Below, piece by piece: positions 26,608 through 64,000 of a stretch of DNA of 64,000 nt. Made by a program: the position numbers and the translations under genes. Each line of letters opens with the position of its first letter. Position 1 is the stretch's first letter. Source of the DNA: Theocolax elegans (Eukaryota > Arthropoda > Insecta > Hymenoptera > Cerocephalidae); contig CM047431.1 of NCBI GenBank assembly GCA_026168455.1, positions 13,938,183 to 14,002,182 of the forward strand. Direction: 5' to 3'. The notes beneath the pieces are model-generated. The model was not told the DNA's origin. It saw nothing but the letters and a program-made list of their open reading frames with translations, and did not search any database.

Positions 26608-26663
26608 ACTCACATTTCTGAGAGAAAAAAAGAGATTAAAGGAATAATGTGTTTAGATATAAA

Positions 26664-28839
26664 ATGTCAGGTTCGCCTAAAAATACTGATTGTTATGTAA
26701 ATAAACAAAGAAACACGAGTTTAGAATTTTCTATGAATGATACGTTATTAAATTTATACAAAGAAAAAGTTCAGACTCTCGATACTCTCGATTTAACTAA
26801 AACTCCTAGGGAAACAGTGCAAAATTTGACAAAAGAAATAAATTATTTAAAGGATAGAATAGAAAAAAGTGCAGCAAATATTTCATTATCTATAAAAATA
26901 CCTCGCGATTTTGAATATAGAGACCCTTTTTTTCCAACTGATCTTTCTATTTCCGAAGTTAGTGAAGACGAACAGGAAGACACAATAATTACTCCCACGC
27001 GTGTAAAACATTTTAGTTTAAAACCCGCAGTTTTGAATTACGAGGAACAAAAAGAACTTATCGCGAATAATCCTGTAAATTTTAGTACGCCAGCCCCAAT
27101 TTATCGTCCATATGAACCATTGATTTTAACACCGGATAACGTTATAAGCTCGGTAAGAAAACGGCTCGCGACTGAAGTAAAAAAAGAGTTGTTAGATTCT
27201 TATCTCGAGGAACCTAAAATCATAGAAAGTTTACAAGAAAGTGTAAAAAAAGGGACAACTTTTCAAGGTATCATAAATAAGATTAAAGGCGCGTTAAATA
27301 TTTTTTCCGCACCGATCGAAAAAGAGACTGAGGAAGCAAAGGCACTAGTGACAGACACGGCGAAAGTACTCGACGAAAAACTAATTCAAGGCGCGACAGA
27401 TTTTACAATTCCCTTCGATAATCAATTAATTAAAAAATCGCCCGAACAAGCAAACTCTTCTAAGATTAAAGACGAATTATTTAATAAAATTAATTTAGAC
27501 GAATTAAGAACAAGCACCGGAACAAAACCAAAAAAACTAGATAGGAGTGAAGTTAAAAAACAAATTAACAATAAAACAATGACGTCTCAAATTCGAGGTT
27601 TATCGCTAAAAGACGCTCTAGATTTAATACCGCGATTTAACGGTCATAATATAAATTTATCGCAATTTTTGGACGGATGCAACGAAGCAAAAGAAATTTT
27701 ACCGTCGGAGTATGAAAAAGAGTTAACAAAACTTATTCGAATGCGTTTATATGGGGAAGCTTTAACTTGTGCGCGCGGAGAAAATTTTAATTCTATCAAA
27801 GAGATATCCGATTTTTTCGAAAACTACCTTCGGATCGATAAAAACATATTACGAGTGGACGGGAGAACTAGCTAAATTAAAACAAAAAAACAATGAGACA
27901 GTCGTTGCTTATTTTAATCGGTTACAAGAAATAAAAAATGAAATAGTCAAAGCGGCCGACAGAGAGGGACGAGTCGCGATAGCAGATCATTTCATGCTTG
28001 AACTAAGGCGAGATTGTTTAAAATTCTTTTTAAAAGGGCTTCGTTGGGAAATTCGTGCGCGTTTAGGGACTCCAAGTTCTATAAAACAAGCTCGTGAACA
28101 AGCGCTCGAGGTGGAGCGCGAGTTCGCTTGTAGCGTCTTGGACGAGGAGACGCCGAGCCGAGAAGAGACTCGTTTTCGTTCAACTCGAGAAACGCGTAAA
28201 GTAAACTATATTTCTAATAACTCTCCGATTGTATGTCAATATTGTTCTAAGACTGGTCATGGAGCCATAAATTGTTTCAAATTAGCACGAAGTTTTGCGG
28301 AAAGATTTTCCGATAATAACAACCGACGCAATCCCATAAACAGTTCATATAGTCCACAAAATCGCTCGGATAACAGTCGTAATTATAATAGACCAAATTT
28401 ACAATTTGGTGGTTGGAATGAGTATCAAAATCAGACGGAATTTTTACCAAATAGAGACAGAGATAAAAATGATTCCTTTGTTCGTTATAATAATAATAAA
28501 TACTCGTCGCAGCAATTTAACAAAGAAGATCGGGGAAATAATTCCGGGACTCGCGGTGTGCGCGAGCCGGTTAATCCAACTTCCCAAGAATCACGATATA
28601 TTAATAACGAATCGAATAATAATATAAGATCACCAGTTACTTGTTTTCATTGCGGAAAACCCGGTCACATAAAGCGCGATTGTTATAAGTTACAAAGAGA
28701 GATAAGAGAAGGAAATCAAAATCAGGGAAACACCGATACTCTCTCTCCGAGGAGGGTCGAGAGAGAGGCTACGAATCAAATTCCCTCTACTTCGAGCGCG
28801 GAAACCCGCTCAATCGTCCCCTCCGCACCGCGAAAATAA
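26664..28839 (+). pseudogene. gag: gypsy-A gag, one frameshift
   Basis: It opens at ATG 26664 (MSGSPKNTD). The first part (~390 codons, to ~27828) is Lys/Glu-rich followed by the start of a capsid-like domain (ALDLIPRFNGHN...). A +1 change near 27825-27832 (CTACCTTCGG) moves the frame, and the capsid continues as GSIKTYYEWTGELAKLKQKN. The nucleocapsid part has two CCHC knuckles, CQYCSKTGHGAINC and CFHCGKPGHIKRDC, separated by an Asn/Arg/Ser-rich linker. It stops at 28837-28839. Only one extra base separates it from a continuous Gag, so mutation or assembly error are both possible. A programmed shift inside capsid would be unusual. Confidence 0.85.
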
Positions 28840-28841
28840 AT

Positions 28842-31640
28842 TTAAGCCAACAGAGTTCAGCCCCGGTCGTAATCTTCGATACCGGTCAGTTAAGACGTCC
28901 GTTAAAATTCTTGCTAGATACAGGAGCATCGGTAAGTCTAATTAAAGAGTCAGAGGTAGACTCTCGCGTAAAAATTGACGAAAATGATATTATATTGTTA
29001 AAAGGCATAACTGACCACTCATTAACTACTCGTGGTAAAATCAGAGTAGATTTCGAAGGATCTCCCGTGGAACTCAATTTAGTACATGATTCGTTCCCTA
29101 TACAACAAGACGGAATCTTAGGCACCGATTTTTTCCGTAGAAACGATGCAAAAATCAATTATTTGGAACAATATTTAGAATTTAACGGATTAATCCTCCC
29201 CTTTGAAAATGCAAATAATATGCAAAAGGATGAATCGATATATATAGTGGAGAATATCGAAAATTATGACCGAAAATCAATACGATATATGCCAAAACCA
29301 AGGGAAAACAATGGTTATACGAACATGAAAAATTCAAGATTTTATAATTATACCGATAGTGACTCAGAAACGTCAAGTGATTTTCAATTACACGAAAATG
29401 ATGAAATGTTTATAAAATTTGACACAAACGAATCGTATGAAATCTACGAGCAAGAACAAAAAAATGGAAGAAATCAAAATGGCAACGACAAAAACCTATA
29501 CAATCACAGTGAAAAAGAACAAGAGTTATATGACGATTATAAAGATGACGAAATACAAGTACATCAGATCGACGAGGCGTCGGATCTAAGGAATAATACA
29601 TGTAAAGCAAGTGAAAATTGTTATGGATTAATGAAGAAAGAACGATTACAAATAAATAATGGAAAAAAGCAGTCACGGGTATGTGATGTGACTGAGCTAC
29701 GTATTAAAGAGAAATTTGATGAAATTACTGAAAATTATGGTATTATTGAAGCACCATTGTTCGATAGGATGGCTGAGAGTCCCTCCTGTACTAATTATGA
29801 AAACGAAGTTGACCTGAAATATGATATTGAAAATGAAATAAAAAATGAAGAAAATTTATTGAATAAGACAGTCAATAATTGTCGAGTACAAATGGTTAAT
29901 GAAATCGAGGAGGGCGATAAATGCGGACCTCGTGAAAATAAGGAAAATTTTGTTGATAAAAAGATGAATTGTCGAGTACAAATGGATTATGAAATCGAGG
30001 AGGGCGATAAATGCGGACCTCGTGAAAATAAGGAAAATTTTGTTGATAAAAAGATGAATGGTCGAGTACAAATGGATTATGAAATCGAGGAGGGCGATAA
30101 ATGCGGACCTCGTGAAAATAAGGAAGATTTTGTTGATAAAAAGATGAATTGTCCAGTACGAATAGATTACGAAATCGAGGAGGGCGATAAATGCGGACCT
30201 CGTGATAAAAATGTTAGTTATGTTTGTAAATTGGATAACAAAGAATTGGTTATGTCGGGGGAAGAGTTAGATACTATCCCGAGAACCGAAATATTATGGA
30301 TAAACAAACAAGGAACTGAAGAAACTGAAAATGAGATAAATAATGAGAATTTAATAAACATACAAGACGAAAATGAACAATATGAGGACCCTAGCGATTT
30401 TTTATTGAATGAACGAGTTATAAACGAAAATTTACGAAGTGAATTTGTTGAAGCCATACACGAAAACGAAATGAATAACAGTTATTTGGTTTATTCAAAT
30501 AAACCTTATATTAATAATTTTTATAGTTATGAAAGTGAAGAGGTCGGCATACACGACATTTCTGACGACCGATCTGAAGCGAGGATACTTAACATAACGG
30601 AGGATACGAGTACACTTAATCGTAATGAACGATTAAAAGAAGCATTGCATTTTGATAAAATGGACGAGGAACAAAGACAATCTATAGAGAATTTAATTGA
30701 TAAATATTCGGATTGTTTCTGTCTAAAAGGAGAAAAATTAGGCGTTACAAATGCTATAGAACATAAGATACCGACTGTCGACGACATACCAATCACAGCT
30801 AAGCCATATAGATTTCCTCATGCTCTCAAAAGCGAACTTGATAAACAATTAAAAGAAATGATTGAAGGAGACATAATTGAACCATCAAGTTCCAATTATA
30901 CATCACCTGTTTTTCTAGTAACAAAAAAGCCTGATAGTCAGGGTAATAAACGATACCGACTAGTTGTCGATTTTCGACAATTAAACGATAAAACCGTAAA
31001 AGATCGATACCCATTACCTAATATACTAGATATTATCGATCAAATCGGACCAGAAAATCGTGTATTCACCGTCTTGGATTTATGTCAAGGATTTTTACAA
31101 GTTCCGTTAGCACAAGAAGATCGACACAAAACAGCTTTCGCATCTTCATTCGGTTTATTTCAATTTAAAACAATGCCTATGGGATTATGCAATTCTCCAG
31201 CCACTTTTCAAAGAATGATTGATCGTGTTTTCGAAGGCATGCAAGGCAAAGAAATATTTTTATTCCTTGACGACGCAGTTATATACGCTAAAAATATTCA
31301 GGAGCATAACCAAAAGTTTGAAAAATTTTTGCAAAGAGTACGCGCCGCAAATCTGAAATTACAGCCAGACAAATGTGAATTTTTGAAGAGAGAAGTAGTG
31401 TATCTGGGACACGTACTATCACCAGAAGGGGTTTTGCCGGATCCAAAAAAATTAGAAGCAGTAAAAAAATTTCCAATTCCAAAAACAGTGAAAAACATAC
31501 GTCAATTTTTAGGATTAGCAGGTTATTATAGACGATTCATTGCGAATTTTTCGGGTATAGCTAGACCATTAAGTAATTTATTAAAGAAAGACGCACCTTT
31601 CTATGGTCCAGCGAGGTTCAAAAGGCATTCGATGATTTAA
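28842..31640 (+). pseudogene. pol: gypsy-A pol, protease-RT part, frameshifted at its end
   Basis: The pol frame is -1 relative to gag and is open across the gag stop. The protease has FLLDTGASVSLIK near 28905-28945 and ILGTD near 29115. A ~480-residue acidic, Asn-rich linker follows, containing four 30-residue repeats. The reverse transcriptase starts near 30700: KPYRFPHAL, TSPVFLVTKK, LVVDFRQLN, MPMGLCNSPATFQR, and the active site FLDDAVIYAK at about 31262-31291. The frame ends at a stop after a one-base loss near 31604 (CTTTCTATGGTCC). Past that, WSSEVQKAFDDLREKL continues in another frame into RNase H. It would act in the virus-like particle to copy element RNA. Confidence 0.9.
29881..30210 (+). 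repeat. Four in-frame 90-bp tandem repeats within pol
   Basis: Units begin near 29881, 29971, 30061 and 30151. Each encodes 30 residues with the core YEIEEGDKCGPRENKE(N/D)FVDKKMN. The period is exactly 90 bp with few substitutions, so the copies are recent and the reading frame is kept. They lie between protease and reverse transcriptase. Confidence 0.9.
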
Positions 31641-33826
31641 GAGAAAAATTGTGTAAGCAACCAATACTACAAATCGCAGATTTTAACAAACCATTTATAG
31701 TGACTTGTGACGCTAGCGGTACAGCAATAGGAGCAATATTATCACAAGGAGAGGTGGGAACCGACCTACCAGTTGCTTATGTTTCACGAGTATTAAACAA
31801 AGCCGAGCAAAAATATGATACTTATTCAAGGGAAGCATTAGCCATACTGTATGCCGTTACTCAGTTCGATTGCTATCTAAGAGGCCGTCGTTTCCTCATT
31901 ATAACAGATCATAAACCACTTGTTTGGTTTAAAAACTCAGTAGATCCGACATCTAGAGTTAGTAGATGGAGAATAAAACTGAATGCATACGACTTTGACA
32001 TCGTATACAAAGCCGGTAAAAGTAACGTTAATGCTGACGCATTATCAAGAAATCCAATAGAAGAACCCGTTTATGTTATTAAAAATCATTCTATGGAAAC
32101 ACGCAGTCGTGCAGGAAAAATAACACGGCTAAACTACAACGAAAAGAGAGCAAAACGACCCAACAAGTCAAATATATCAAAAGAACCAGTCAAAAACCTT
32201 CCTATAATACAAGAAGCCCCCGAGGAAATTGAAACGATAGTCAACTCAGACAAAAGATTACAACCCATGGAGATAGATAATTTTAACAACAAATTTGACG
32301 AGTCCTGGGAAGAGAAGGATGTTTACGAAGAACCAAATGATGAAAAGAAATTCATTGAAGTTAAAGAACAACTCTTTATGAGAAAAGATAATTACGTTTA
32401 TTTCATAACTACGACTGGAATGCCTTTAGATGAAGGATCCAGAAATTTGGCTTCCAAATTATTACTACCTCATTTTTCCAATTTAAATCCAGGAGAAATA
32501 AGAATCAATAACAAAAACGGAAAAATGCATTTTGCTATGGTGTTACGTGACGAAGAGCGACTGAGTACTTCAGAAATTATTAATAATCTAAAAACGAATC
32601 TATTAAATTTAAAAAATATTATATTAAAAGAAAAATTACGTTCAATAAGTATCGCAAAGAGCGAATTTATTGAAAACGTTTCATGGAACGAAATATTGAA
32701 ACAAATAAGTATAACTCTACGAAAAATTAATGTAAAAATAATTATTTGTTTAGGATTCATAAAATGTGTGGAAGAGAGTAATAGGGAAAATATTATTCGC
32801 GAAATGCACGAGTCTGCTTGTGCAGGACATAAAGGGGTAACAAAAACCTATAAACGTATAAAACAACGTTTTTATTGGCCAGATATTAAGAAAGACGTAC
32901 AAAACTACATTAGACATTGTTTAACTTGCCAACTAAAAAAATTGGTTCGTGTTAAAACTAAACAACGTATGATAATAACAGATACTCCGTACTCGGCTAT
33001 GGAATCCATATCGGTCGATCTTGTGGGACCATTTCCCAGATCTCGAAATAATAATAATAATATATTAACCATTCAATGCAACCTTTCAAAATACTGTATG
33101 GCGATACCCATACCAGACGCGACCGCGGCAACGATCGCCGAAGCGTTAGTCCGTCGACACTTCTCAATTTTTAGCGCCCCGTTGTTAATTATATCCGACC
33201 AAGGTACCTCATTTTTAAGTAGTCTGATGAGAGAAGTAGCGAAAATTTTTAAGATTAAACAAGTTAAAACCACGGCTTATCACCCTCAGTCCAACTCCGT
33301 TGAGCGTTTTCATAGCAGCTTAGCAGATTATTTAAAAACAATGATAGAAAGAAATGACTCATGGGATGAGTTATGCGAATTAGCCGCGTTTTCATATAAT
33401 ACGTCGGTACATGAGGGTCATCTCTACACACCTTTTGAAATTGTTTTTGCAAGAAAAGCGCGACTACCATCAAACGAACCTTTAGACCCACGAGAACGAG
33501 TTCCAACGTATGATGATTACATTATAAATTTACGACAACGTTTAAACGAAATACAGGGAATCGCGCGAGAAAAATTAATAGCTTCTAAACATAGGTCAAA
33601 ATTCTATTACGACAGGAAAGCCAATCATCAAGAATTTCAGACAGGGGATAATGTCTGGTTATTAAAAGGAGGGAAGAAATACAAACTAGGCGATCAATAT
33701 ACTGGACCACATCGGATTTTAGAAATAGTTAATAACAAGGGAAATGTAAAAATAGAGCTACCTCATAATAAAACGAAAATAGTGCATGTTAATAGGTTAA
33801 GATATTCATATATGGAACCTTTGTAG
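31605..33826 (+). CDS. pol: gypsy-A pol, RNase H-integrase part
   Basis: This continues the polyprotein after the frameshift. RNase H has VTCDASGTAIGAILSQ, YSREALAILYA and ITDHKPLVWF. The integrase zinc domain reads HESACAGHKGVTKTY...RHCLTCQ (HHCC). The catalytic core has Asp in SVDLVGPF, Asp in IISDQGTSF and Glu in HPQSNSVERFHSSL. The C-terminal part has GDNVWLLKGGKKYKLG...YTGPHRILEI. It ends at 33826 with no further frame that looks like env. The residues needed for strand transfer all appear to be present, so only the upstream shift breaks the gene. Confidence 0.92.
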
Positions 33827-40950: not shown

Positions 40951-43900
40951 TTAATCGTTGTTTTCATGTTTACGTAGACCGATGTCTAAACAAAGTTTTT
41001 CGTGCGGTTCTCGATACAGAGCTTTTGTGAATATATCTGCCAGTTGGCATTTAGTTTGAATATAAGTCACATTAATTTCGCCACGATCATATTTTTCACG
41101 AATAAAGCGATATTGAACTTCAATGTGTTTGGTCCGTCTGTGAAAAACTGGGTTTTTTACTAATTGGATAGTACTTTGATTGTCTATATGCATCATTAAC
41201 GGTTTTTCACATGGACGTTCAATATCTGACATTAATTGACGTAGCCAAACAGCTTCGCGCACGGCGGTACTTGCTGATACATATTCAGCTTCTGTGCTGC
41301 TTAAAGTTACACATTTTTGGCGCTGAGCGCACCATGAGATCGGTCCATTACATGCTGTAAATATATATCCAGACGTGGATTTTCGAGTACTTAAATCTCC
41401 CGCGAAATCGGAATCGCAATATCCATTTATAACAAAGTTACTCCCGCTGCTTTCATACATGATACCGAGGTTAATCGTTCCTTTTACATACCTAAGAATT
41501 CTTTTCGCGGCTTCTCTATGAGATTTATTGTGATTTTCTAAAAATCTACTCAACACGTTTGTGGCAAATGATAAGTCAGGCCGAGTGACCGTACATAGAA
41601 ACATAATCGAACCTATTAACTCGCGATATGGGAAAATATCCCCCTCTGAATCGAGATCCTTCGTCAAATCTAGATCGGCTCCTCTTTCCATAGGAATGCC
41701 AACAGGCTTAGCCTCAGTCATATTGAATCTGTTAAGAATCTTTTTCGCGTAATCCGTTTGATGAAGGAACACGGTTCTACTATTTCTATCGCGTACAATG
41801 TTGATACCGACAAAAGAATCCGGATTACAAGTGGTAATTTCGAATTTATTTTTAAGAATCACAATAACTTTTTCTAACGTAGTTTTGTTTTTAGTTAATA
41901 CCAAGCCGTCGTCGACGAATAATACTATGTACACGCGGACGCTATCTATCGCTCCTTTAAAAATCGATTTTTCCGAGATACAACATTCAAAACCGTAATT
42001 TGATAAATAATTCTTAAATGTTTCGTTCCATTCGCGCGACGCTTATTTGAGTCCGTACAATGCTTTATTTAATTTACACACTGAATTAGTCTTTTTGTTT
42101 TCTATGTTTACACCATCTGGTATTTTCATATAAATGTCTTCGTGGAGTACACCATGCAGGAACGCCGTTCGAACATCGAATTGTACCATTTCTAGGTCTT
42201 CGTGGGCCGCAACGGCCAGGATGAGACGCAGCGCGTCGTAGCGAACCACCGGGGCAAACGTGTCAGTATAGTCGATTCCATGTTGTTGTTGGAATCCTCT
42301 AGCGCATAAGCGCGCCTTGTATCTGCTGGTTTTGCCCGCCTTCGCTTGTTGCAGTTTGAAAACCCATTTTGAATCTATGAGATTGCATTTTTCCGGTCTA
42401 ATCACTATGGTCCAGGTACCATTTGATTCATGTGCTTGAAGTTTTTCACGAATTGCCCTTATCCAGGCGTCACTGTTTGGACCTGATAGTGCTTCACGAT
42501 AAGAATTTGGTTCGTGTTCTTGAATCAAATTTGCCTCATACCGTACGGGTTTCTTTATGGTGTCTCGGGCTCGCAGGGTCCTGACAGGAGCTTCTGTTTT
42601 ATCGTCTTTCTCGATACTGCTGCATTCAGCCACTTTTTCGGTCGATGCATCACGGGCGAGTGGATTGTCAGCACGAGCAGCGCATTCCTTTTCTGGACTG
42701 TCTTCGCAGGAAATTGATACATTAATTGATACATAATCATTCGGACGTTTCGAGATTCAAATACTCTTCTGGCATGAGGATCGTATACACGATAATTTTT
42801 GGAGTCTCTCTGATATCCCACAAATAAAACCTTCTTGGCTTTTGCGTCGAATTTCTTTCGGAACATTTTTGGAATGTGAATGAAGGCTGGCGATCCAAAA
42901 ACTCGCAAATGTTGATAGCTTGGCTTATTACCTGACCATAACTCCCATGGTGTGACATTAGGATTTCCTTGTGAGATCGTCATATTCAGAACGTATACTG
43001 CGGTGCTGATCGCTTCGGCCCATAGAAACGTCGGTACATTTTTCGCCATCATCATGGTTCGAGCACTTTCGACGATTGTCCGGTTTTCTCGCTCCGCCAT
43101 ACCGTACTGCTGCGGTGTATATGGCGCGGTTGTTTCCAATTTGATGCCTTTTTCGTGAAGAAGTTTCTCTACAGCGGCGTTACAATACTCGCGCCCGTTA
43201 TCGCATCGCAAAACCTGCATTGAACGATTAAATTTGTTGTATACTAATCTCTCAAAAACTTTTAATCGATTGTATACATCGGCTTTGTGCTTGAGGAAAT
43301 ACACATGCCTGTAACCAGTTGAGTAATCTTTGAAGGTTAAAAAATACCTCGAGCCGCTCAATGAATCAACCTGCATGGGACCGCATACGTCACTATGGAA
43401 CCGCTCGCCAGGTTAACAATTGATTTCTTCCGACTTTCTTTTAAACGGCCGGACGTACGCCTTTCCTTGATGACAATCTTCATACACAGCTTCGTTGTCG
43501 GGATGATTTTTGACTCCGTCGATGAGTCCCAATTTCGTCATGTGCAGTAGAGTTTTCTTGTTTACATGCCCGATTCTTGCATGCCACATTTGCAAGGTGC
43601 TCGTTGACATATTCGCTTTGTGTTGTGGAACGGCCCTAATAAGCATTCGATAAATTTGATTACTTTGTTTTATACCTTGAGCTACAAGAGTCTCGTTGTC
43701 AAAAAATGTTACTTTTTCTTCTTGAAATATTACCGTGAGGCCTTTGCTTGTGCAGGCACCGACAGAAAACAAATTTTTCTTTATGCGAGGGACATACAAA
43801 ACATTTTTTATTTTACCTGTCAGCCAATGACCGTCAATAAATCTTTGAATATTAACGGTTCCAATACTTTCGACTTTCAATACTTCATCATCACCTAGTG

Positions 43901-44870
43901 CAACTTCGCCGTTGTATGGAGAGATGGATGTAAACCAGTCACGTCGATAAGTCAGATGCTGAGATGCCCCGCTGTCGGTAAGCCAGATGTCGTTCGTTGG
44001 TTGTTTCATAACCTGCGCTGCGTCGCGCGAACTTTGTACACCGATCTCCGATGCTATAAACGCCACATCTTCGGAATTTTCCTTTGATTCGCCTTTAGGC
44101 TTTTGTTTTTCTGTATTCCTTTTCTTTCGGCAACTGCTGGCGTAATGTCCAAGTTTCTTACAATAGAAACACCGTATTGTTGACAAATTTTCGCGTGTCC
44201 TTGGTTGTCTGTTTTGATGTTCGTTCGGCACTCGTTCATCGCGGTGTTTACTTCTCGCGTTTGTAACCACGAAAGCGCTTGCTTCTTGACTGTCTTGCTC
44301 ACTCAAGCGTTTCTCTTCTTTGATTAGACGTTCCTGGAGAGTATCGAGTGTTTGTTTTTTGGAGTCTACGCTATCCCAGGCAGTCACAAAGTTATTATAT
44401 TTAGAGGGCAAACTGCCGAGAATTTTCGACCTTATTCCGAGCTCCGATATCTTCTCGTCTAAATCTGCCAGCGTTCGAGCCATGTTTAAAATTTTCGTCG
44501 TAAATTGTATAACTGAATCGCTGGGGTCCATGCGGCACGCGTAGAATTTTTGTAATAGACTTGATTTATTTGCTTCGGATTTCTGTTCGTGGATAAGCGT
44601 CATTTTCTCCCACATTTCATTAGCGGATTCGCTAGTAATACAATTTTCCAACTGATTCGGGACCATGGCTGATGCTAGTATGCACATGGCACGTGCATTG
44701 TCTTTTATCCACTTCAATCCTTCAGGAGTCGTAATGTCTTTAGGTTTCTTGGTTTTATCTATTACGATGTCGTACACACTGTTGGCTGTTAATACTGCGC
44801 GCATCTGGAACTTCCAAATTTGAAAGTTTGTACCGTCGAATTTATGTAGGTTTGACGTAGTCTTCGACAT
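40951..44870 (-). pseudogene. gag-pol: copia gag-pol polyprotein, two stops and one frameshift
   Basis: It starts at ATG 44870 (MSKTTSNLHKFDG). Gag carries a CCHC knuckle, CFYCKKLGHYASSC, and the protease has TDSGASQH. The integrase zinc region has HARIGHVN...YEDCHQGK, where the first Cys of the usual CxxC is Tyr. A TAA at 43413-43415 then interrupts the same frame. The core resumes with HSDVCGP, LRCDNGREY and MAERENRT (D, D, E). A frameshift lies near 42745. The reverse transcriptase has KWVFKLQ, KARLCARGF and VQFDVRTAFLHG, then a TAA at 42043-42045 replaces the expected Gln in YGLKQASREW. It continues with FVDDGLVLTK (active site) and RNase H with STEAEYVSAS and HIDNQST, ending at 40951. 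As one ORF it would be about 1300 residues. Confidence 0.93.
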
Positions 44871-55200: not shown

Positions 55201-57192
55201 AATTAATAAAAAAATCATATCTAATGTGCACACTTAACTCAAATATTTACAAATATACATATAAGCAGCACCTTTAAAGAGTACCACTAATATTGCTAAG
55301 TTTTTAACGAATGCGTTAAAAATAAATTAATTAATAAAAAAAATCATATCTAAAGTGCACACTTAATTCAAATATTTACAAATATACATATAAGCAGCAC
55401 CTTTAAAGAGTAGCGCTTCAAATTTTAAAATAAATCATCAATAGAACAATTCAAAAATTGAAGCAGCATCTTTAAAGTGTAGCACTAATATTGCTAAGTT
55501 TTTACCAAAGTGTTAAAAATAAATTAATTAATAAAAAAAATCATATCTAAAGTGCACACTTAACTCAAATATTTACAAATATACATATAAGCAGCACCTT
55601 TAAAGAGTAGCGCTCAAATTTTTAAAATAAATCATCAATAGAACAATTCAAAAATTGAAGCAGCACCTTTAAAGCGTAGCCCTAATATTGCTAAGTTTTT
55701 AACAAAGCGTTAAAAATACATTAATTAATAAAAAAAAATCATATCTAATGTGCACACTTAATTCAAATATTTACAAATATACATATAAGCAGCAACTTTA
55801 AAGCGTAGCGCTAATATTGCTAAGTTTTTAACAAAGCGTTAAAAATAAATTAATTAATAAAAAAAATCATATCTAATGTGCACACTGAATTCAAATATTT
55901 ACAAATATACATATAAGCAGCACCTTTAAAGAGTAGCGCTTCAAATTTTAAAATAAATCATCAATAGAACAATTCAAAAATTGAAGCAGTATCTTTAAAG
56001 TGTAGCACTAATATTGCTAAGTTTTTAACAAAGCGTTAAAAATAAATTAATTAATAAAAAAAATCATATCTAAAGTGCACACTTAACTCATATATTTACA
56101 AATATACATATAAGCAGCACCTTTAAAGAGTAGCGCTCAAAATTTTAAAATAAATCATCAATAGAACAATTCAAAAATTGAAGCAGCACCTTTGAAGCGT
56201 AGCGCTAATATTGCTAAGTTTTTAACAAAGCGTTAAAAATAAATTAATTAATAAAAAAAATCATATCTAATGTGCACACTTAATTCAAATATTTACAAAT
56301 ATACATATAAGCAGCACCTTTAAAGAGTAGCGCTCAAAATTTCAAAATAAATGAACAATATAACAATTCAAAATTTAAAGCAGCACCTTTAAAGTGTAGC
56401 ACTATTATTGCTATGTTTTTAACAAAGCGTTAAAAATAAATAAATTAATAAAAAAAATCATATCTAAAGTGCACACTTATTCAAATATTTTCAAATATAC
56501 ATATAAGCAGCACCTTTAAAGAGTAGCGCTCAAAATTTTAAAATAAATCATCAATACAACAATTCAAAAATTGAAGCAGCACCTTTAAAGCGTAGCAGTA
56601 AAATTGCTATGTTTTTAACAAAGCGTTAAAAATAAATTAATTAATAAAAAAAATCATATCTAAAGTGCACACTTAATTCAAATATTTACAAATATACATA
56701 TAAGCAGCAACTTTAAAGTTTAGCACTAATATTGCTAAGTTTTTAACAAAGCGTTAAAAATAAATTAATTAATAAAAAAAATCATATCTAAAGTGCACAC
56801 TTAATTCAATTATTTACAAATATACATATAAGCAGCACCTTTAAAGAGTAGCGCTCAAAATTTTAAAACAAATCATCAATAGAACAATTCAAAAATTGAA
56901 GCAGCACCTTTAAAGTGTACCACTAATATTGCTATGTTTTTAACAAAGCGTTAAAAATAAATTAATTAATAAAAAAAATCATATCTAATGTGCACACTTA
57001 ATTCAAATATTTACAAATATACATATAAGCAGCAACTTTAAAGCGTAGCACTAATATTGCTAAGTTTTCAACAAAGCGTTAAAAATAAATTAATTAATAA
57101 AAAAAATCATATCTAAAGTGCACACTTAATTCAAATATTTACAAATATACATATAAGCAGCACCTTTAAAGCGTACCACTAATATTGCTAAG
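49219..57192. repeat. 8-kb two-module satellite with higher-order structure
   Basis: Two monomers alternate. Module A (~69 bp) reads CACCTTTAAAGAGTAGCGCT then AAAATTTTAAAATAAATCAT and ends ATTGAAGCAG. Module B (~128 bp) reads CACCTTTAAAGCGTAGCACT then AATATTGCTAAGTTTTTAAC, includes AAATTAATTAATAAAAAAAA, and ends ACATATAAGCAG. They share the CACCTTTAAAG start and AAGCAG end. They occur as AB and as BB. Diagnostic variants recur at ~1885 bp (for example 50386 and 52271) and ~521 bp (53791 and 54312; 54751 and 55272), showing higher-order units. The left edge is in the gap; the right edge is cut by gypsy-B. Confidence 0.95.
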
Positions 57193-57803
57193 TGTTATAA
57201 ATTTATTGGGACGATCTGTCGAAACATTGACAATCTGTTCAACATAGGTATAAATAATTATACAAATGAATAAGGCGGAATAGTAATTAATGATATCTTA
57301 CCTTTTGGAGACTCGGATAGCCAGGCGATAAGTATATATCTATATATATTGGTTGGTTCTAGGGCTCGATGAATAAATAATTAGATATTTCTACTGCTTT
57401 ATTTTAGACTTTTAACTTTATTGAAAAGAAATCACAAAACGGAAAAAATATAAGATTATAAATTTAGAAACCGGCGAATATTGTCGAAAATAAAAATAAC
57501 TATATAAAATCAAATATCGCCGAACGAAGAAAAGAACTAATTGTCGTACAACTCGTAGGAGATTACTTTCTCGCGGCTGAGAGAGAACTGGGCCCGGGGC
57601 AAGTGCAATGTCAGGAAGGAACTAGGAGAGGACCTTCCCTACTCCTAATTACTTCCCCACATTGACGTCACGCAGTTGGCCTTCGCTCATCAAAGTTGCA
57701 GTGTTGTGCATTCCTTGACCAGCGATAAGGAATCCGTGCGACTTTGTTAGCCCCGAGTCGTTCTTACATATATTTTCTTACATATATTTTCTGGCATGTA
57801 ACA
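57193..57803 (-). repeat. gypsy-B 3' LTR
   Basis: On the minus strand it starts TGTTACATGCCAG after the polypurine tract and ends AAATTTATAACA at the satellite junction, ~611 bp. TG...CA ends. The partner LTR is outside the window, so the limits rest on the tract on one side and the satellite break on the other. Confidence 0.8.
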
Positions 57804-57822
57804 TCCTCCCCCCCTTAAAGGC
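57804..57822 (-). promoter_or_regulatory. gypsy-B polypurine tract
   Basis: Minus strand TTTAAGGGGGGGAGGA immediately before TGTTACA. Confidence 0.85.
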
Positions 57823-58161
57823 GTTTGCCGTCCTCGGCAAAAGGTGGTACATTTTATTTCGTAAGGTGAGAAAGAGGGCTAAATGTAAAATTAACATATA
57901 TAAATAAAAAGGAAAAGCAAAAAAAAGAATATCCTTTGGTCGATTTAACTTTTGGTCAATTTGGTCTTTGGTCATTATTTCTTTTTTTTTTTTCTTTTCT
58001 TTATTTTCGTCGTAAGTGTTTTCATTTGATTTGATTACGTTTTTCCTCTTTCTTCCTTTCACAATAAAAAATTTTATATAAAAACTCGATCAAAAGAAGG
58101 AAATTAATAATAGTAAAAAAAAAGTAAAAATTTGATTATTATTGATCGGTTTAGTTTATAA

Positions 58162-58959
58162 CTAGTCTTGTTTAAAGTTTCGGTCCTTTCGCTGTATCTT
58201 CATACGGATGTTGCTACAATATTCGGGGTTCAATTCCCGCTTATTTAAATGTTCGTTTGGTCTGGTTCTATTTTGGTCTGTAGTGCCTCGCCTAACTTGT
58301 TTGCAGAATCGTACGTGGTCTAGGAAGTTTTTTCCATTGACCTGTCTACCGCATTGATAGTGAATCCTTTTCAATGGTCCGTTGTATCTGGTTAACGCCT
58401 GAGGTCCAACATGTTTTGGTTTAAACCGTCTTTCCCTTTGGACCGCTTGGTTTGCTGCCTCATTGTGAAAAAAACAAATGAATGCCATTCTTCCGTTATT
58501 TGTTTGTTCAATTAAATGGACATATTCTATGTCCCCGTGATTGGAGAAGGTGTCGTAGATGTCTTGATCGGGTAAATGGTCTGGTACTAGGATGTGAATG
58601 CGCCTTCCTGATTCGTCCACCACTTGGCGCACCTTGTTTTCTGGTTCTTTGAACTCTCGTCCGACCGATATCAGCGACTCATCGGTCGATTGAGTTTCAT
58701 ATTCTTGGTCATTTTTTTTGGTCTTAGTTGTGGTCGCTGGTTTCAATTTTCCATATTCCTCCGCATTCTTGGCACTTTCTTCCTGTTTGAAAGTTACATA
58801 AGCTATACCAGCTGGTATCTGATCTAATTTTATTTCTAAAATTTCTCCGAAGCGGACGAATAGGTCGAAGATTGCTCCTATATTTAAAGGTATGTTGAGA
58901 ATGAGGATCAGTTGGTTTAGTGCTCCTGCTGAGCGGAAGGTTGCTTTCACAGATTCCAT
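58162..58959 (-). CDS. Accessory ORF-2 of gypsy-B: two RRM-like domains + C..H..C motif
   Basis: 265 codons from ATG at 58959. Residues ~15-70 have an RRM-like pattern: LILILNIP (RNP2-like), then AGIAYVTF (RNP1-like, 50-57). A charged linker follows. Residues ~119-178 form a second RRM: IHILVPDHL (RNP2-like), SNHGDIEYVHLI, and GRMAFICFF (RNP1-like, 156-164). Then LKRIHYQC...LDHVRFC has Cys203, His215 and Cys219 as possible metal ligands, and the tail is basic (QRKDRNFKQD). It lies 195 bp downstream of the other accessory ORF and ~340 bp before the polypurine tract. The shared RIH..C...H...C block suggests paralogy with that ORF. Predicted RNA-binding protein; function unknown. Confidence 0.75.
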   Translation of the reverse strand: MESVKATFRSAGALNQLILILNIPLNIGAIFDLFVRFGEILEIKLDQIPAGIAYVTFKQEESAKNAEEYGKLKPATTTKTKKNDQEYETQSTDESLISVGREFKEPENKVRQVVDESGRRIHILVPDHLPDQDIYDTFSNHGDIEYVHLIEQTNNGRMAFICFFHNEAANQAVQRERRFKPKHVGPQALTRYNGPLKRIHYQCGRQVNGKNFLDHVRFCKQVRRGTTDQNRTRPNEHLNKRELNPEYCSNIRMKIQRKDRNFKQD

Positions 58960-59154
58960 TTTGGTTATCCTGTGTAACAGAAAGCAAATAAGACAATATA
59001 TTATAGATATGTAAATAGAAATTTATTTTATTTAGTGTGAGCATGCTTGAATGGTTAGAGAAAAAGGAAAGAAAAAAAAAGATAGAAATAAAGAAGAGAG
59101 GGAATTGCCATTGGTGTTAGTAAATGTGGAAGCTTTTTGGTCATTTTGGTCAAG

Positions 59155-60186
59155 TTAATTTTGGTCACTTTGGTCAATATCTATTAAGTTTTCAGTGGTT
59201 CCAAGCTCCGCTGCTTCTGGTTGCATTTGCATGAGCTGTAAATGTTCTCGAATTGTATTGACTTCTTCATCGGTTACATCTGGTTGTATTCTTCTTCTTT
59301 TTGGCTTTTCAACGTCTATGAGGTTAGCATTTTCACATAATACTCCTTCGAACGGATCTGCTTTGATTTCTGTTTCTAAATGAACAGGCTTGGGGCCTTG
59401 TTCCATTAAGTCCCCTGTGATAATATGTTTTCCTAGCTTCCAGATTATGGGGGAGCCTGGTTGGACCTCAGGTTCTCGCCACGAATAATCGACAACTTCT
59501 GTTTTTTCTACAACTTCATTGCTTAGGCGCCATGTTCCTGGGTCTCTTCTTATGTTTCTTAATTCCGTCTGTTTCTGGCATATTTCTTCGTGATGGTGAT
59601 AGGTGCTGCTGCTGACTAACCGTTTGCAAAGTGGATGAATACGTTTTTCTAATCTGGGTGGATTTTTCCATTTATCCTTACTTAATTTCCGTGGTTCCGA
59701 TATGAAAGCTCCGTATCTGGGGTGGCTTCGTTCCAGTGCTTCTTTTGTGTCCCTCGGGTCCAAGTATCTTACGTAACCGTAAAGACCTCGTCCTTTTTGG
59801 TCAGTAGTTGTGTATAGGTAATCTAATACTCCGAATTTTTCAAATTCTAAAAAGAAAGTTTCCTCGCTGATTGCGGGAGGTATTTTACAGAATAATCTGG
59901 TCCTGTCCTGTTTCTCCGTGATATATTCTTTTGGTCTTGTCATAATAGGCGTTAGCTCGTTCAATAATTTTACTTTTTCTTCTTCTTTCATAAGCGTCGC
60001 TCTGAACATATGATTTGGCCAGCCCTGTTTCACAATTTCGATCTTGTCCAATGGTCCATAATTTGATTCTATCCACTTGGCAGCTTCCCCAAGTGGTGTT
60101 GGTTTTTTCGCCGAGATTAGTATATTATTATCAGAAAGTTGTAGTTGGAAATCGAATCCGTATCTTGTATTTGATCCGTTTGCCAT
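59155..60186 (-). CDS. Accessory ORF-1 of gypsy-B: RRM-like protein + C..H..C motif
   Basis: 343 codons from ATG at 60186, 164 bp after env. Residues ~11-80 look like a degenerate first RRM (FQLQLSDNNILISAKK... then HMFRATLM). Residues ~96-150 are a clearer RRM: TRLFCKIP (RNP2-like), EFEKFGVLDYLYT, and KGRGLYGYVRY (RNP1-like, 131-141). Next KRIHPLC...HHHEEIC places Cys187, His197-199 and Cys203 as possible ligands, matching the end of the other accessory protein. The last ~130 residues are acidic and Pro-rich, possibly an interaction tail. No signal peptide or membrane segment. RNA-binding is a prediction from pattern; no homologue is known to me. Confidence 0.75.
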   Translation of the reverse strand: MANGSNTRYGFDFQLQLSDNNILISAKKPTPLGEAAKWIESNYGPLDKIEIVKQGWPNHMFRATLMKEEEKVKLLNELTPIMTRPKEYITEKQDRTRLFCKIPPAISEETFFLEFEKFGVLDYLYTTTDQKGRGLYGYVRYLDPRDTKEALERSHPRYGAFISEPRKLSKDKWKNPPRLEKRIHPLCKRLVSSSTYHHHEEICQKQTELRNIRRDPGTWRLSNEVVEKTEVVDYSWREPEVQPGSPIIWKLGKHIITGDLMEQGPKPVHLETEIKADPFEGVLCENANLIDVEKPKRRRIQPDVTDEEVNTIREHLQLMQMQPEAAELGTTENLIDIDQSDQN

Positions 60187-60350
60187 TACTATTTTTTTTT
60201 TATTTTTTTATTATTTATTTTTATTTTTGGTCGATATCTGTAATCATAAAATTTCAATTAATTTCTGTATTTCTGATGGGGTGAGTTGATGTTAATGGTG
60301 ACCAAATGTGTTATGACTCTTGTGTTTCTTTTTATGCTATAGGCTTATAG

Positions 60351-62339
60351 TTAGTCTAATTCTGCTGATTGTTTGGGTAATGCGTCAGATTGAGAATGGT
60401 GTAGATTAGTTGGGATAGAAGCGTAATGGGAATTTTCAGGAACAATAAAAATAGTATCAGTACTATGGTCTCGTCGTCGGTCATCTGTCCGTGGTGCTAC
60501 CTTTGTTAGGGTATTAGATTTAGTTGAGGTCCTTTTAGATTTAACCTTAGTGTTAACCCAATAACCAACTAATGATATGAGGGTTAAAATTAATAAAATG
60601 TGCAATGAAAAGCTTCCAAATGTCCAATAACTATAATGATTTTGACTTCTCTTGTGCTGCCTGATTTGGTCCAGCCTTGTTGATATATCAATCAACTTTT
60701 CTTCCTTATCTTTCCAGAGTGGGTGGTCAAAGGTTAGTTCCTTGATTACGTCCAGTTTGTCAGTTTCGTCGTCATGATGTTTAAAAATTGGGTACAGGTT
60801 TGCAATTTGTAAGTTAATATCTGGTTTGTAAATGTATCTATTCGGGTTTCTCGATTTTTCAATAATGATTAAGGTAACTCGGTCTGTGTGTCCGGTGCAG
60901 GTTGGTGCAATCCTTAATATTCCAACTCCTTTTAGGGTCGTAATTATGTCTGGTTTTTCTGGACATGTGATTCTTAGCATTTCTGGTTTGGCTGCAGAAA
61001 ATAGCCATGCTTCATCTTCTTGTAGGTACTTCCATTTAGTTTCAAGGTTGTGATGGTATATAATTTCACAAGTTTTTAAGTTTTTGATATTTGGTCTCAT
61101 CAGCATTGACAATTCGCAATCATCTTGAATTGATGCTTCCTTGAGTGGTTCTTTTAATGAACAAATATGTCCGTAGATTAAGTGTCGGCAATCGTTGAGT
61201 ACGTCATAATTCACTTTGAGATATTGTTTATGGTCCTCGCTCACTATTATGTAAGAATGGCTCGTTTTAACGTAGGCGAATCCGATAGTTTTATTTTCTA
61301 TTTCCTGTGGTACAGCCAAAGAATGTATTTTATACAAATTAAATGAATTTTGATCTACTAGCGGTAGGTGTAAGGTGGCTAATACTTGTCCGTTATGGTA
61401 GCTCGTAGTAATATCAGCTATGTTAGAAATTTCTTCTGCTTGTAGGTGTTGATAAGGAATGGGTAATTTAAAATAATTCATTTCTCGATGAATATCGTCT
61501 ACTATTTGTCTGATTAGATTGGTTTTCAACAATCGCGGATGTATTTCTTTTCGCCTTAAAGATTGAAGAATTTCTAAAAATTCTTTATTGCTATTTATTA
61601 GATGGTCGAAAATGGCTTCAACTTTTCTTGCGTAATTCATAAATTCTAGAACGTAATCGATGTGTTCTTCTTTGGTGGCTAATCCTCCTACTCTATCCTT
61701 AATAATTTTTACTAAAGTTTGTAAAGTTTTTGAATGTTGATTTGTAACGTTGTATAGATGGTCTAGTGAAGTATTAATTATATGGGTTTTTTTATTACTT
61801 AGATTAATTATTTCCTTTTGGTCTTCATAAATTTGGTCTATGTTGTTATTGATTTCATCTATTTCTTCCATGGTTGCTGTTCCGAAGAGGCTTTTGCTAA
61901 CGCTTCCTATAATTCCTAACGGCGCTGATCGTCTTCTTCTGATGGTGTATGGTGTACCTTTGTCGTTCTTTGGTGTATATTTTAAGTCTGAGAATACGAT
62001 ATTTATTTCTTTTTGGAGTTCTCGAAGAGTGTTATTTTTTATGTTGATTAACTCTTGGTCCAGTGACATGTCACATTTCCAGGTAAAAATAGCATTTTTA
62101 CATTGTAAATAAACTTGGTCGTCAATTTTGAGACCTGAGTGGTTATTTAAAAATTTCTCGGCATCGATATAGATTGCTATTTGCCAATCTGCTTTCTTTA
62201 TTCTTAAATTTCCTATTCTTTCATAATATATTCCGGATATTGAGTTTAATTTCTCTATGTCATAAGGGTCATTTGTCATGGTCACTGTCCGTAAGAGTAA
62301 AGGTAAAAGTAAGAATGTGTAGACTGTGGATATTTTCAT
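60351..62339 (-). CDS. env: gypsy-B envelope, baculovirus-F-like fusion protein
   Basis: 662 codons, intact. An N-terminal signal peptide (~1-22, Leu-rich) is followed by an ectodomain with a furin-type RRRR at 134-137. Directly after the site is a Gly/Ala-rich fusion-peptide-like stretch (GIIGSVSKSLFG), as in the F-like Env of insect errantiviruses. A helical region with Asn-linked glycosylation sites follows, then a Cys-containing central part, a hydrophobic anchor at ~572-594 and a ~68-residue cytoplasmic tail. It starts 36 bp after the pol stop, so expression from a spliced RNA is expected from the family. No stop, shift or missing hallmark seen. Confidence 0.92.
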   Translation of the reverse strand: MKISTVYTFLLLPLLLRTVTMTNDPYDIEKLNSISGIYYERIGNLRIKKADWQIAIYIDAEKFLNNHSGLKIDDQVYLQCKNAIFTWKCDMSLDQELINIKNNTLRELQKEINIVFSDLKYTPKNDKGTPYTIRRRRSAPLGIIGSVSKSLFGTATMEEIDEINNNIDQIYEDQKEIINLSNKKTHIINTSLDHLYNVTNQHSKTLQTLVKIIKDRVGGLATKEEHIDYVLEFMNYARKVEAIFDHLINSNKEFLEILQSLRRKEIHPRLLKTNLIRQIVDDIHREMNYFKLPIPYQHLQAEEISNIADITTSYHNGQVLATLHLPLVDQNSFNLYKIHSLAVPQEIENKTIGFAYVKTSHSYIIVSEDHKQYLKVNYDVLNDCRHLIYGHICSLKEPLKEASIQDDCELSMLMRPNIKNLKTCEIIYHHNLETKWKYLQEDEAWLFSAAKPEMLRITCPEKPDIITTLKGVGILRIAPTCTGHTDRVTLIIIEKSRNPNRYIYKPDINLQIANLYPIFKHHDDETDKLDVIKELTFDHPLWKDKEEKLIDISTRLDQIRQHKRSQNHYSYWTFGSFSLHILLILTLISLVGYWVNTKVKSKRTSTKSNTLTKVAPRTDDRRRDHSTDTIFIVPENSHYASIPTNLHHSQSDALPKQSAELD

Positions 62340-62375
62340 TGTAAGAGAAATAGCTGGAAAACAGAAAATAATAAT

Positions 62376-64000
62376 TTATTTGATAAGAGTTTTGCGTATG
62401 GGGGCGGGTTTTAATTTATTAATATGTTTTCGGATTCTTTTTCCATTGGGTAGTTCTAATATGACATTGCTGCGCCCTAATATTTCAATAATTTTTAAGG
62501 GTTTCTTATAATATGAGTCAAATTTAGATGTTCGCGGTTCATTCAATATATATGCATAATCACCTATTTTCGCATCAAACGGTTTCGTCTTCCTATCATA
62601 TCTCTCTTTCGACTTATACTTGGCTTTAATCTGGTTTTTACCGGCTTTAATTCGTACTTCATTTAGTCGTGTAATTAAATCACGTAAAAACGAATTGTAT
62701 GTATGTAATTTTTCATGATTTGGAATATACATTGGGAATCGAGCTATTTTTCCGAATACTAATTCGTAGGGGGTGTAGTTAGTGGCAGAATGCACGCTAG
62801 TATTGTAAGTAAATATGGCAAAGGGTATCAATCTGTCCCAATCATCAAAATTTTCTGAATAACATTTTAGAAAATCCATTAGTGGTGCATGGCTTCTTTC
62901 TAATTGGCCATTAGTTTGTGGTCGGTATCCGGACGTGGTCAAATGGTTTATTTTAAATGTTTGTAGCATAGTTTCCACTATCTCTGATAAGAAACTTGTT
63001 CCTCGATCTGATAAAATTGCTCTTGGGGCTCCAAATTGACAAATTAAATGTCTGGCTAGTGCGTCAGCTATAGTCGTCGCTCTAAGGTTCGGGATCGGCA
63101 CTGCTATTAGATATTTGGTCAGATTGCATTGCATGGTTAATATGTGGCAATTTCCTTGAGGTGTCGTTCTTAATTTCCCCACGGTGTCAATAGATACCTT
63201 GTCGAAAGCGTCTATAGGAGTGTCGGTTATTATCATTGGTTCTCTTGTTTTTATTCGGTCTAGTTTCTTTTCTTGACAGTCCGGACAAGTTCGAATGTAA
63301 TCTAGTATATCGTTTCTCATTCTCGGCCAGTAAAATCTTTCTCTAATTTTCTGGTACGTTTGATTTACTCCTTTGTGTCCTCCTATCAAACTGTCATGCA
63401 ATGTTGATATAATATTTTGCCTTTCTTCAGTCGATGGTAGTTCTACTTTTCCGTAACACATGGTAATTTTTATAGGTGAGTGTTCGAATATGTTGTATAA
63501 TATTTCAGTCAATAATCCGGGTTCAAGGACATCGGTAAAATCACCTTTTCTAGCTATTCGAAAGCTATGTAAATTTTTTTGAATTAAAATAGCTTTTAAA
63601 TTTCGAAGGGTTGTTTTTAATACGCTTACTTCTAAAGAGTCATAATGTTTATCTTTTATAACTAATGAAAAAATGTTATGATTTTTATATGGCGTGACTA
63701 AAATTTGGCCTATTTTGGGTCGTTTATATTTAAGAGTCTTTAGATCTATTCCTTCTATTTCACTTAATAACGTTATAGTTGAGTTGCTTGCTTCGCAATC
63801 TCGGGAAATAAAATGCACTAAATTATCTCGTTTATACATTAAGCATTGTCGGGTCGTGATTAAATTATTTTTCATAAGTATTGGTAAATCTGATAATGGT
63901 TCCGATTCACTGATAACTATATCGTTTTCGCTAAGCGGTTTATACTGATTAATGGGTCCTTGTGGTGGAGGTATTGGGTAAAATATTGGGAAGTCAATTT
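62376..64000 (-). CDS. pol: gypsy-B pol, integrase part (5' partial)
   Basis: The frame is open from the window edge to the stop at 62376, so the gene continues outside. A Pro/Gln/Ser linker comes first. The integrase zinc domain has HDSLIGGHKGVNQ...RTCPDCQ (HHCC). The core has Asp in VSIDTVGK, Asp in AILSDRGTSF and Glu in NGQLERSHAPL. The C-terminal part has GDYAYILNEP...KKPLKIIEILG. Sequence style (TDTP, QCNLTKY, YDRK) parallels the gypsy-A integrase, so both belong to related gypsy lineages. It joins element DNA to the host genome. Confidence 0.92.
   Translation of the reverse strand, partial: IDFPIFYPIPPPQGPINQYKPLSENDIVISESEPLSDLPILMKNNLITTRQCLMYKRDNLVHFISRDCEASNSTITLLSEIEGIDLKTLKYKRPKIGQILVTPYKNHNIFSLVIKDKHYDSLEVSVLKTTLRNLKAILIQKNLHSFRIARKGDFTDVLEPGLLTEILYNIFEHSPIKITMCYGKVELPSTEERQNIISTLHDSLIGGHKGVNQTYQKIRERFYWPRMRNDILDYIRTCPDCQEKKLDRIKTREPMIITDTPIDAFDKVSIDTVGKLRTTPQGNCHILTMQCNLTKYLIAVPIPNLRATTIADALARHLICQFGAPRAILSDRGTSFLSEIVETMLQTFKINHLTTSGYRPQTNGQLERSHAPLMDFLKCYSENFDDWDRLIPFAIFTYNTSVHSATNYTPYELVFGKIARFPMYIPNHEKLHTYNSFLRDLITRLNEVRIKAGKNQIKAKYKSKERYDRKTKPFDAKIGDYAYILNEPRTSKFDSYYKKPLKIIEILGRSNVILELPNGKRIRKHINKLKPAPIRKTLIK

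What the first reader, a model, noticed from the sequence alone, without database searches (positions are those of the whole stretch)
58162..60186. Errantivirus-like element with two extra RRM-protein genes after env
Between env and the 3' LTR of gypsy-B lie two intact ORFs (343 and 265 codons). Each can be read as two RRM-like domains plus a shared C-terminal RIH-x2-C...H...C block. RNP1-like motifs are visible (KGRGLYGYVRY; GRMAFICFF; AGIAYVTF). The usual errantivirus plan is gag-pol-env only, and I know of no described element with a duplicated RNA-binding module here. Inference: the proteins manage element RNA (nuclear export of unspliced RNA, splicing balance, packaging, or countering small-RNA silencing), in the way Rev-like factors do for complex retroviruses. 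The two ORFs look like an old tandem duplication.
Basis: partly seen in the sequence, partly recalled or inferred. Interest (0 to 1): 0.9.

Follow-up and report, generated by a model that had tools for sequence, protein, structure and literature searches.

The report
Retrovirus-like element with captured RNA-binding genes
A young, many-copy retrovirus-like element in an animal genome, probably an insect's, carries two extra genes after its envelope gene that resemble the host RNA-binding protein RBM45, and its RNA carries clusters of a short motif of the kind RBM45 binds, which suggests it manages its own RNA with a borrowed host protein.

Summary
On the minus strand, between a baculovirus-F-type env and the 3' LTR of a 16.2-kb Ty3/gypsy element, lie two intact ORFs (343 and 265 codons). 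ORFB has two RRMs by Pfam; ORFA has one, and its N-terminal domain is not shown to be an RRM. Both carry an HxxC-x11-H-x3-C block after the RRM. The pair is no one-off: 19 of the 20 best ORFA loci in this genome have ORFB downstream, 7 of 20 with both full length and stop-free, and 12 of 20 stretches around weaker matches keep env-ORF-ORF. ORFA is under purifying selection. New here: the best solved-structure match of both proteins is RBM45, and the genome's own RBM45 gene was found; env and ORFB have a good predicted splice acceptor 10-14 nt before the ATG, and the best predicted donor sits in the LTR; GACCAAA, containing the GAC that RBM45 reads, is the most enriched 7-mer in the 3' non-coding gaps. 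Best explanation: accessory RNA-binding proteins from spliced messages bind GAC arrays in the element's RNA and control its fate. Export, splicing, translation and packaging cannot be told apart. No expression or binding data; fold prediction failed.

The parts
57191..57803 (-). 3' LTR, 613 bp, TGTTACA...TATAACA; 5-bp target duplication CTTAG with the 5' LTR on contig C7 (14010919-14011531)
57300..57301 (-). GT of the best-scoring splice donor (AAG|GTAAGA), LTR offset 502; the 5' LTR copy would be the one used
   Evidence: top donor of LTR plus leader; intact in 12 of 13 LTRs that cover it (14 looked at)
57804..57816 (-). polypurine tract
   Evidence: read
57935..57973 (-). array of four GACCAAA in the 3' untranslated stretch
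58162..58959 (-). ORFB: RRM + RBM45-type RRM + HxxC...HxxxC block
58970..58971 (-). AG of the predicted ORFB splice acceptor (TTGCTTTCTGTTACACAG), 10 nt before the ATG
   Evidence: rank 2 of 419; comparable site in 9 of 9 diverged rows
59136..59175 (-). array of four GACCAAA that runs across the ORFA stop codon
59155..60186 (-). ORFA: N-terminal domain of unknown fold + RBM45-type RRM + HxxC...HxxxC block + tail with KPKRRR and EHLQLMQM
60238..60239 (-). weaker candidate ORFA splice acceptor (TTATGATTACAG)
   Evidence: rank 19 of 419
60351..62339 (-). env, Baculo_F family
   Evidence: E 4.6e-34
62354..62355 (-). AG of the predicted env splice acceptor, 14 nt before the ATG
   Evidence: rank 1 of 419
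62376..63875 (-). C-terminal part of pol (integrase zinc domain and rve core)

Best explanation
The element is a complex, env-carrying Ty3/gypsy retrovirus whose env-to-LTR region encodes two accessory RNA-binding proteins that descend, by duplication, from an RBM45-type RRM of a host. Each is probably made from its own spliced message (donor in the LTR, acceptor just before the gene). The proteins bind GAC-containing arrays (GACCAAA) near the 3' end of the element's RNA, and thereby steer that RNA after transcription. Shown by computation: genes, RRM family, selection, recurrence, motif enrichment. Predicted only: splicing. Inferred: binding of the arrays, and the outcome (most likely getting incompletely spliced RNA out of the nucleus or balancing splicing).
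For: RBM45 is the best PDB match of both proteins (ORFA E 6.5e-7; ORFB 3.5e-7) and of both family profiles (2.2e-18; 1.7e-12). Human RBM45 RRM1-2 letters searched in this genome give 25 rows: the two exons of the host RBM45 rank first, 18 of the other 23 rows lie in fetched ORFA/ORFB loci (9) or overlap other ORFA/ORFB matches (9), and 5 are unassigned. The RRM2 residues that read A and C (Arg122, Phe124, Tyr165; PMC11402289, passages and Discussion part 1) correspond to ORFA R97, F99, Y138, invariant in 7 of 7 aligned ORFA-like proteins. GACCAAA: 7 against 0.14 expected in 717 nt of gaps, top 7-mer without prior choice; for GACCAA none of 200 shuffles reached the 7 seen. Elsewhere no 4.5-kb stretch of window 1-57000 has more than 3 GACCAA (step 250). 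Arrays persist in L014 and L015 where the surroundings align poorly. Splice sites. Selection: ORFA omega 0.11-0.18 against four relatives at dS 0.8-1.4.
Against: No expression, splicing or binding data. In ORFB the Phe is His and the Tyr is Phe, and its first RRM matches the splicing protein p14/SF3B6 (E 7e-4), not RBM45. For the ORFA profile a poly(A)-binding protein follows closely (2.6e-11). Inside env, ORFB and the pol end the GACCAA count is no more than codon use gives; only the gaps, and weakly ORFA (43 of 1000 shuffles), stand out. Five L042-type loci have no GACCAA in the 2.2 kb after the ORFA match; L042 has two further on. GAC is a short core, so specificity is uncertain. The splice score is crude: the antisense strand has 7 sites as good as the ORFB one. 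AlphaFold models were poor (mean pLDDT 34 and 40). Against L061 ORFA omega is 0.33. In ORFA constraint is strongest in the RRM; the tail is no more constrained than the N-terminal part.
Confidence: 0.5

Rival explanations
1. The proteins act in the particle: they bind GAC arrays as packaging signals and stand in for the missing zinc-knuckle nucleocapsid of Gag.
For: Gag (474 aa) hits no Pfam family, zinc knuckle included; arrays and RRMs as above.
Against: The arrays lie near the 3' end and so, on the predicted splice plan, also in spliced messages, where packaging would not discriminate; leader and LTR have no GACCAA. Other env-carrying gypsy elements manage without such proteins (recalled).
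Confidence: 0.2
2. They interfere with the host: mimics of RBM45 that compete with it, or suppressors of small-RNA silencing or of m6A-linked control.
For: RBM45 resemblance; RBM45 is a reported m6A-preferring reader (PMC13224180, start of abstract in the listing; not seen for isolated RRM3 in PMC11402289). TGACC and GGACC fit the DRACH m6A consensus (recalled).
Against: The GAC arrays in the element's own gaps point to self-RNA as the target. No silencing-suppressor motif was tested.
Confidence: 0.15
3. They mainly set the splicing balance of the element, as RBM45 does for host introns.
For: RBM45 regulates splicing (PMC11402289, abstract); one array sits about 165-205 nt upstream of the ORFB acceptor, inside the putative intron.
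Against: The second array lies beyond all predicted acceptors; no RNA data.
Confidence: 0.2
4. Passenger ORFs without function, or a one-off host capture.
For: Little: many copies carry stops, as expected for dead insertions.
Against: Purifying selection, presence in diverged families, 19 of 20 loci with both ORFs.
Confidence: 0.02

Closest known systems
Insect endogenous retroviruses of the gypsy/gypsy clade (errantiviruses; Drosophila set in EMBO J 2025, PMC12992720, passages read)
   Same: Ty3/gypsy pol, baculovirus-F-type env downstream of pol, env expected from a spliced message
   Different: Passages read describe gag, pol and env; 'RRM', 'RNA-binding', 'accessory' and 'export' occur 0 times in the text. 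Here two RRM genes follow env, with a leader of almost 4 kb and a predicted donor in the LTR
Complex retroviruses: Rev/RRE of lentiviruses and Rex of deltaretroviruses (recalled; Rev summaries seen as abstract starts in the listing)
   Same: Regulatory RNA-binding genes read from spliced messages, with cis elements in the viral RNA; ORFs between env and the 3' LTR as in the deltaretroviral pX region (recalled)
   Different: Rev binds by an arginine-rich helix to a folded RRE (recalled); here RRMs and GAC arrays that fold no better than shuffles; export not shown
sORF1/sORF2 of Drosophila MDG1-group gypsy elements (PMC11952523, passages read)
   Same: Extra small genes in insect Ty3/gypsy elements; sORF1 protein is in a subnuclear compartment
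   Different: They lie upstream of gag in elements without Envelope and are a possible helix-turn-helix and a FAST-like transmembrane protein, not RRMs
Host RBM45 (Drb1)
   Same: RRM2: RLFC...GYV...AEPKK against ORFA RLFC...GYV...SEPRK
   Different: Element proteins show one or two RRMs by Pfam where RBM45 has three; they add the HxxC...HxxxC block and other tails
Bdelloid rotifer LTR elements with captured ORF3 (PMC5408684, outline and abstract)
   Same: Captured genes as a third ORF
   Different: The abstract names esterase/lipase, exonuclease and env-like types, no RRM

Membership tests
Errantivirus (Metaviridae) | Ty3/gypsy-type pol with integrase | tested here: met
   Integrase_H2C2 2.2e-22, rve 6.8e-10; RT and RNase H seen by eye in the frames of L026 and L021
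Errantivirus (Metaviridae) | env of baculovirus F type | tested here: met
   PF12259 E 4.6e-34
Errantivirus (Metaviridae) | RT falls inside the gypsy/gypsy clade in a tree with named references | not tested
   no named reference RT sequences were at hand
Errantivirus (Metaviridae) | env expressed from a spliced message | tested here: inconclusive
   predicted donor and acceptor, no RNA data
RRM proteins (Pfam RRM_1) | profile score above the curated cut-off | tested here: met
   ORFB 48.3 bits against 20.7; ORFA just under it at 20.6; 8 of 10 relatives above it
RRM proteins (Pfam RRM_1) | beta-alpha-beta-beta-alpha-beta fold | tested here: inconclusive
   single-sequence models too poor for a fold search
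RBM45 | closest match among solved RRM proteins is RBM45 | tested here: met
   reverse search
RBM45 | base-reading Arg, Phe, Tyr of RRM2 | tested here: met
   ORFA: R97, F99, Y138. ORFB does not meet it: R kept, Phe to His, Tyr to Phe
RBM45 | three RRMs and HOA domain | tested here: not met
   Pfam shows one or two RRMs only; HOA was not looked for
Rev/RRE-type export system | viral protein that carries intron-containing viral RNA to CRM1 | not testable with these tools
   NLS- and NES-like stretches only

The most novel reading that the evidence does not exclude
A Rev/RRE-like trans-cis system that evolved independently in an invertebrate retrovirus by capturing the host RBM45 RRM, duplicating it, and seeding its own RNA with GAC arrays.
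Probability: 0.35. Interest if true: 0.93.

Novelty: new variant of a known kind. Interest (0 to 1): 0.85.

Why it matters
How env-carrying gypsy elements of insects get intron-containing RNA exported and balance spliced with unspliced RNA is not settled (recalled). A captured RRM gene pair, a likely ancestor gene in the same genome, and a candidate cis motif would make that question directly testable, and would show that invertebrate retroviruses also became 'complex'.

Tried and rejected
AlphaFold2 on single sequences of both ORFs gave mean pLDDT 34 and 40; no fold search was run on them. No relatives in the 5.8-billion-protein search (three searches, none at E <= 1e-3) or in viral contigs. 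A first profile comparison of ORFA with ORFB (98.6%) was inflated because far rows were shared between the profiles; one search replaces it (RRMs 11%, blocks 82%). GAC-array enrichment inside coding sequence was rejected after synonymous shuffling, ORFA being borderline. L057 looked like an Env-RRM fusion; I read it as a deletion product. Whether env-carrying elements without the RRM genes exist here did not complete: the env search was never served. A telomere search to place the host was not made; 'insect' is inferred from the F-type env (recalled). The paper searches for earlier reports listed none that I could tell to describe an RRM gene in an env-carrying gypsy element; only the listings and six papers were looked at, and the library lacks most subscription journals.

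Full report
Anatomy. The element lies on the minus strand and runs off the window's right end. The 3' LTR is 57191-57803 (TGTTACA...TATAACA); a copy listed as 100% identical over 454 compared bases lies at contig C7 14011078-14011531, and both outer flanks show CTTAG, so the element is about 16.2 kb and looks young. Order on the sense strand: 5' LTR, a 3963-nt leader, most of which (L040) has no ORF of 70 aa or more, gag of 474 aa, pol, env (Baculo_F, E 4.6e-34), ORFA, ORFB, 3' LTR.

Domains. ORFB hits RRM_1 at E 9.5e-13 with two stretches; its first 67 residues alone pass the cut-off. ORFA hits RRM_1 at residues 102-153 (E 4e-4, 0.1 bit under the cut-off); its first 91 residues hit nothing. 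Of 10 relatives from diverged families, 8 pass the RRM_1 cut-off and 2 do not (L051 and L056 ORFA-like). Both proteins carry the block H-x2-C-x11-H-x3-C after the RRM (rows; column counts). BLASTP of ORFA with ORFB is collinear over RRM and block (E 9e-6, composition correction off); with clean profiles the blocks match at 82% and the RRMs at 11%. I read this as an old duplication of an RRM-plus-block module; the RRM part of that reading is weak.

Origin. The best solved structure for ORFA, ORFB and for both family profiles is RBM45, mainly its second RRM; the next other protein for the profiles is a poly(A)-binding protein at 8.7e-13 and 2.6e-11. ORFB's first RRM matches p14/SF3B6 instead (7e-4). 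Human RBM45 RRM letters gave 25 rows in this genome: two exons of a host RBM45 at C1:5945702-5946870 (E 2.5e-19 and 1.2e-6) rank first; of the other 23 (E 1.9e-6 to 8.9e-4), 9 lie in fetched loci (L050-L052, L054-L057, L060, L061), 9 more overlap ORFA or ORFB matches, and 5 are unassigned. In L054 and L060 I saw no env or pol within the stretch. The ORFA search itself lists the host RRM2 exon (E 7.8e-5). The host RRM2 reads RLFC...GYV...AEPKK and ORFA reads RLFC...GYV...SEPRK (31% identity over 86 columns). Capture of a host RBM45 is the likeliest origin; 31% identity means it is old, and the donor species cannot be told.

Recurrence and selection. ORFA and ORFB each have 103 matches in the genome (lower bounds, fragments counted singly). 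Of the 20 best ORFA loci, 19 have an ORFB match downstream, 7 with both full length and without stop. In 20 stretches fetched around weaker matches, 8 show pol, env, ORFA-like and a second RRM ORF in this order, 4 more show env and both ORFs, 2 show both ORFs without env in the stretch, and 6 are incomplete or rearranged (my tally). These were chosen by an ORFA match, so they say nothing on elements lacking it. Window ORFA against L014, L015, L016, L019: dS 0.85-1.40, dN 0.12-0.25, omega 0.11-0.18; against L061 omega 0.33 over 226 codons. ORFB against the first four: dN 0.19-0.42 with dS beyond saturation; against L061 0.21. Env: 0.09-0.13 for L014-L016, 0.33 for L019, 0.14 for L061. For close copies ORFA and ORFB omega range from 0.13 to 0.84 on few changes. 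Within ORFA the RRM is the most constrained part (dN 0.079 against 0.17-0.19 elsewhere).

Splicing. I scored AG sites with a crude matrix. Of 419 on the sense strand of 57191-64000, rank 1 is 14 nt before the env ATG and rank 2 is 10 nt before the ORFB ATG; the best ORFA candidate is rank 19. The antisense strand has 7 sites at least as good as the ORFB one, so the score alone proves little; the placement does the work. In diverged families a T-rich stretch ending in TACAG or TTTTAG lies 3-25 nt before the ORFB start in 9 of 9 rows, and a CAG within 3 nt of the ORFA start in 8 of 11 rows; L042 and L045 lack it and the start in the L061 row was misplaced. The best donor of LTR and leader is AAG|GTAAGA at LTR offset 502; it is intact in 12 of 13 LTRs that cover it, some only 77-80% identical overall; one is broken (L071) and one (L067) does not reach it. 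All this is prediction.

Motif. Without choosing a word beforehand, the most enriched 7-mer in the 717 nt of 3' gaps is GACCAAA: 7 against 0.14 in shuffles; no shuffle of 200 reached the GACCAA count. Four copies run across the ORFA stop codon, two of them inside ORFA; four lie before the LTR. Elsewhere in window 1-57000 no 4.5-kb stretch has more than 3 GACCAA on the + strand or 1 on the - strand. In L014 and L015 both arrays persist in part while their surroundings align poorly; L019 keeps the first array only and L016 keeps part of the first and one copy beyond ORFB; L061 has 5 GACCAA in a longer gap and none after ORFB. In the distant L050, L051 and L055 GGACCAA or TGGACCA is among the top words of the gaps; L042, L048, L052, L053 and L056 do not show GACCAA words at the top, L042 having two and L048 one GACCAA after ORFB, L052 one in each gap, L053 and L056 none. 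In coding sequence the count is about what codon use gives. RBM45 RRM1 and RRM2 bind GAC in extended RNA (PMC11402289: passages and Discussion part 1 read). The two arrays fold no better than shuffles, with one GAC paired in the second.

Mechanism. Most likely ORFA, and perhaps ORFB, bind these arrays on the element's own RNA and act after transcription. If splicing is as predicted, the array before the LTR is in every message, so it looks like a tag for 'own RNA' rather than for the genome alone. ORFA's tail keeps KPKRR[RK] and ExLQLMQ in four relatives, which fits a shuttling protein; that is inference. I put about 0.9 on 'conserved RBM45-type accessory genes', 0.5 on GAC-array binding, 0.35 on a Rev-like role.

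Known or new. Ten paper searches and six papers looked at (passages, one section part, or outline: PMC12992720, PMC13172572, PMC11952523, PMC11402289, PMC5408684, PMC7264820) showed gag-pol-env for Drosophila elements and extra ORFs of other kinds elsewhere; I saw none with an RRM gene after env. I call it a new variant of a known kind: an env-carrying gypsy element with a complex-retrovirus plan.

Noticed in passing
window 56000-57190: Tandem satellite (spacings 197 and 128 nt) borders the 3' LTR; the 5' flank resembles the same satellite, so the element seems inserted in the array.
   Followed up: partly
L040 and L039 (contig C7 14006956-14010918): Leader of almost 4 kb between 5' LTR and gag; the part in L040 has no ORF of 70 aa; no GACCAA in it.
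   Followed up: partly
L021: Pol appears to hold a long acidic, Ser/Thr-rich stretch between RNase H and integrase (by eye).
   Followed up: no
L044 (C7:49615000-49624900) and L047: The ORFA/ORFB region repeats three times with a 2,179-bp period in L044; ORFA repeats twice 2,158 bp apart in L047.
   Followed up: no
L042, L043, L048: Pol C-termini are nearly identical while the ORFA-like proteins of L042/L043 and L048 differ strongly, as if the 3' gene block were exchanged between elements.
   Followed up: no
C324:130665-146641: A copy almost identical to the window's element in ORFA, ORFB and both LTRs; perhaps the other haplotype. Its ORFB has a stop.
   Followed up: no
ORFA tail, window 59155-59330: LIDVE and LIDID resemble clathrin-box motifs (pattern recalled).
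   Followed up: no
window 14771-19045, 26649-33826, 40951-44870: Other retroelements: an ORF pair with a reverse transcriptase, a gypsy element whose scanned ORFs hit no env family, and a copia-type element.
   Followed up: partly
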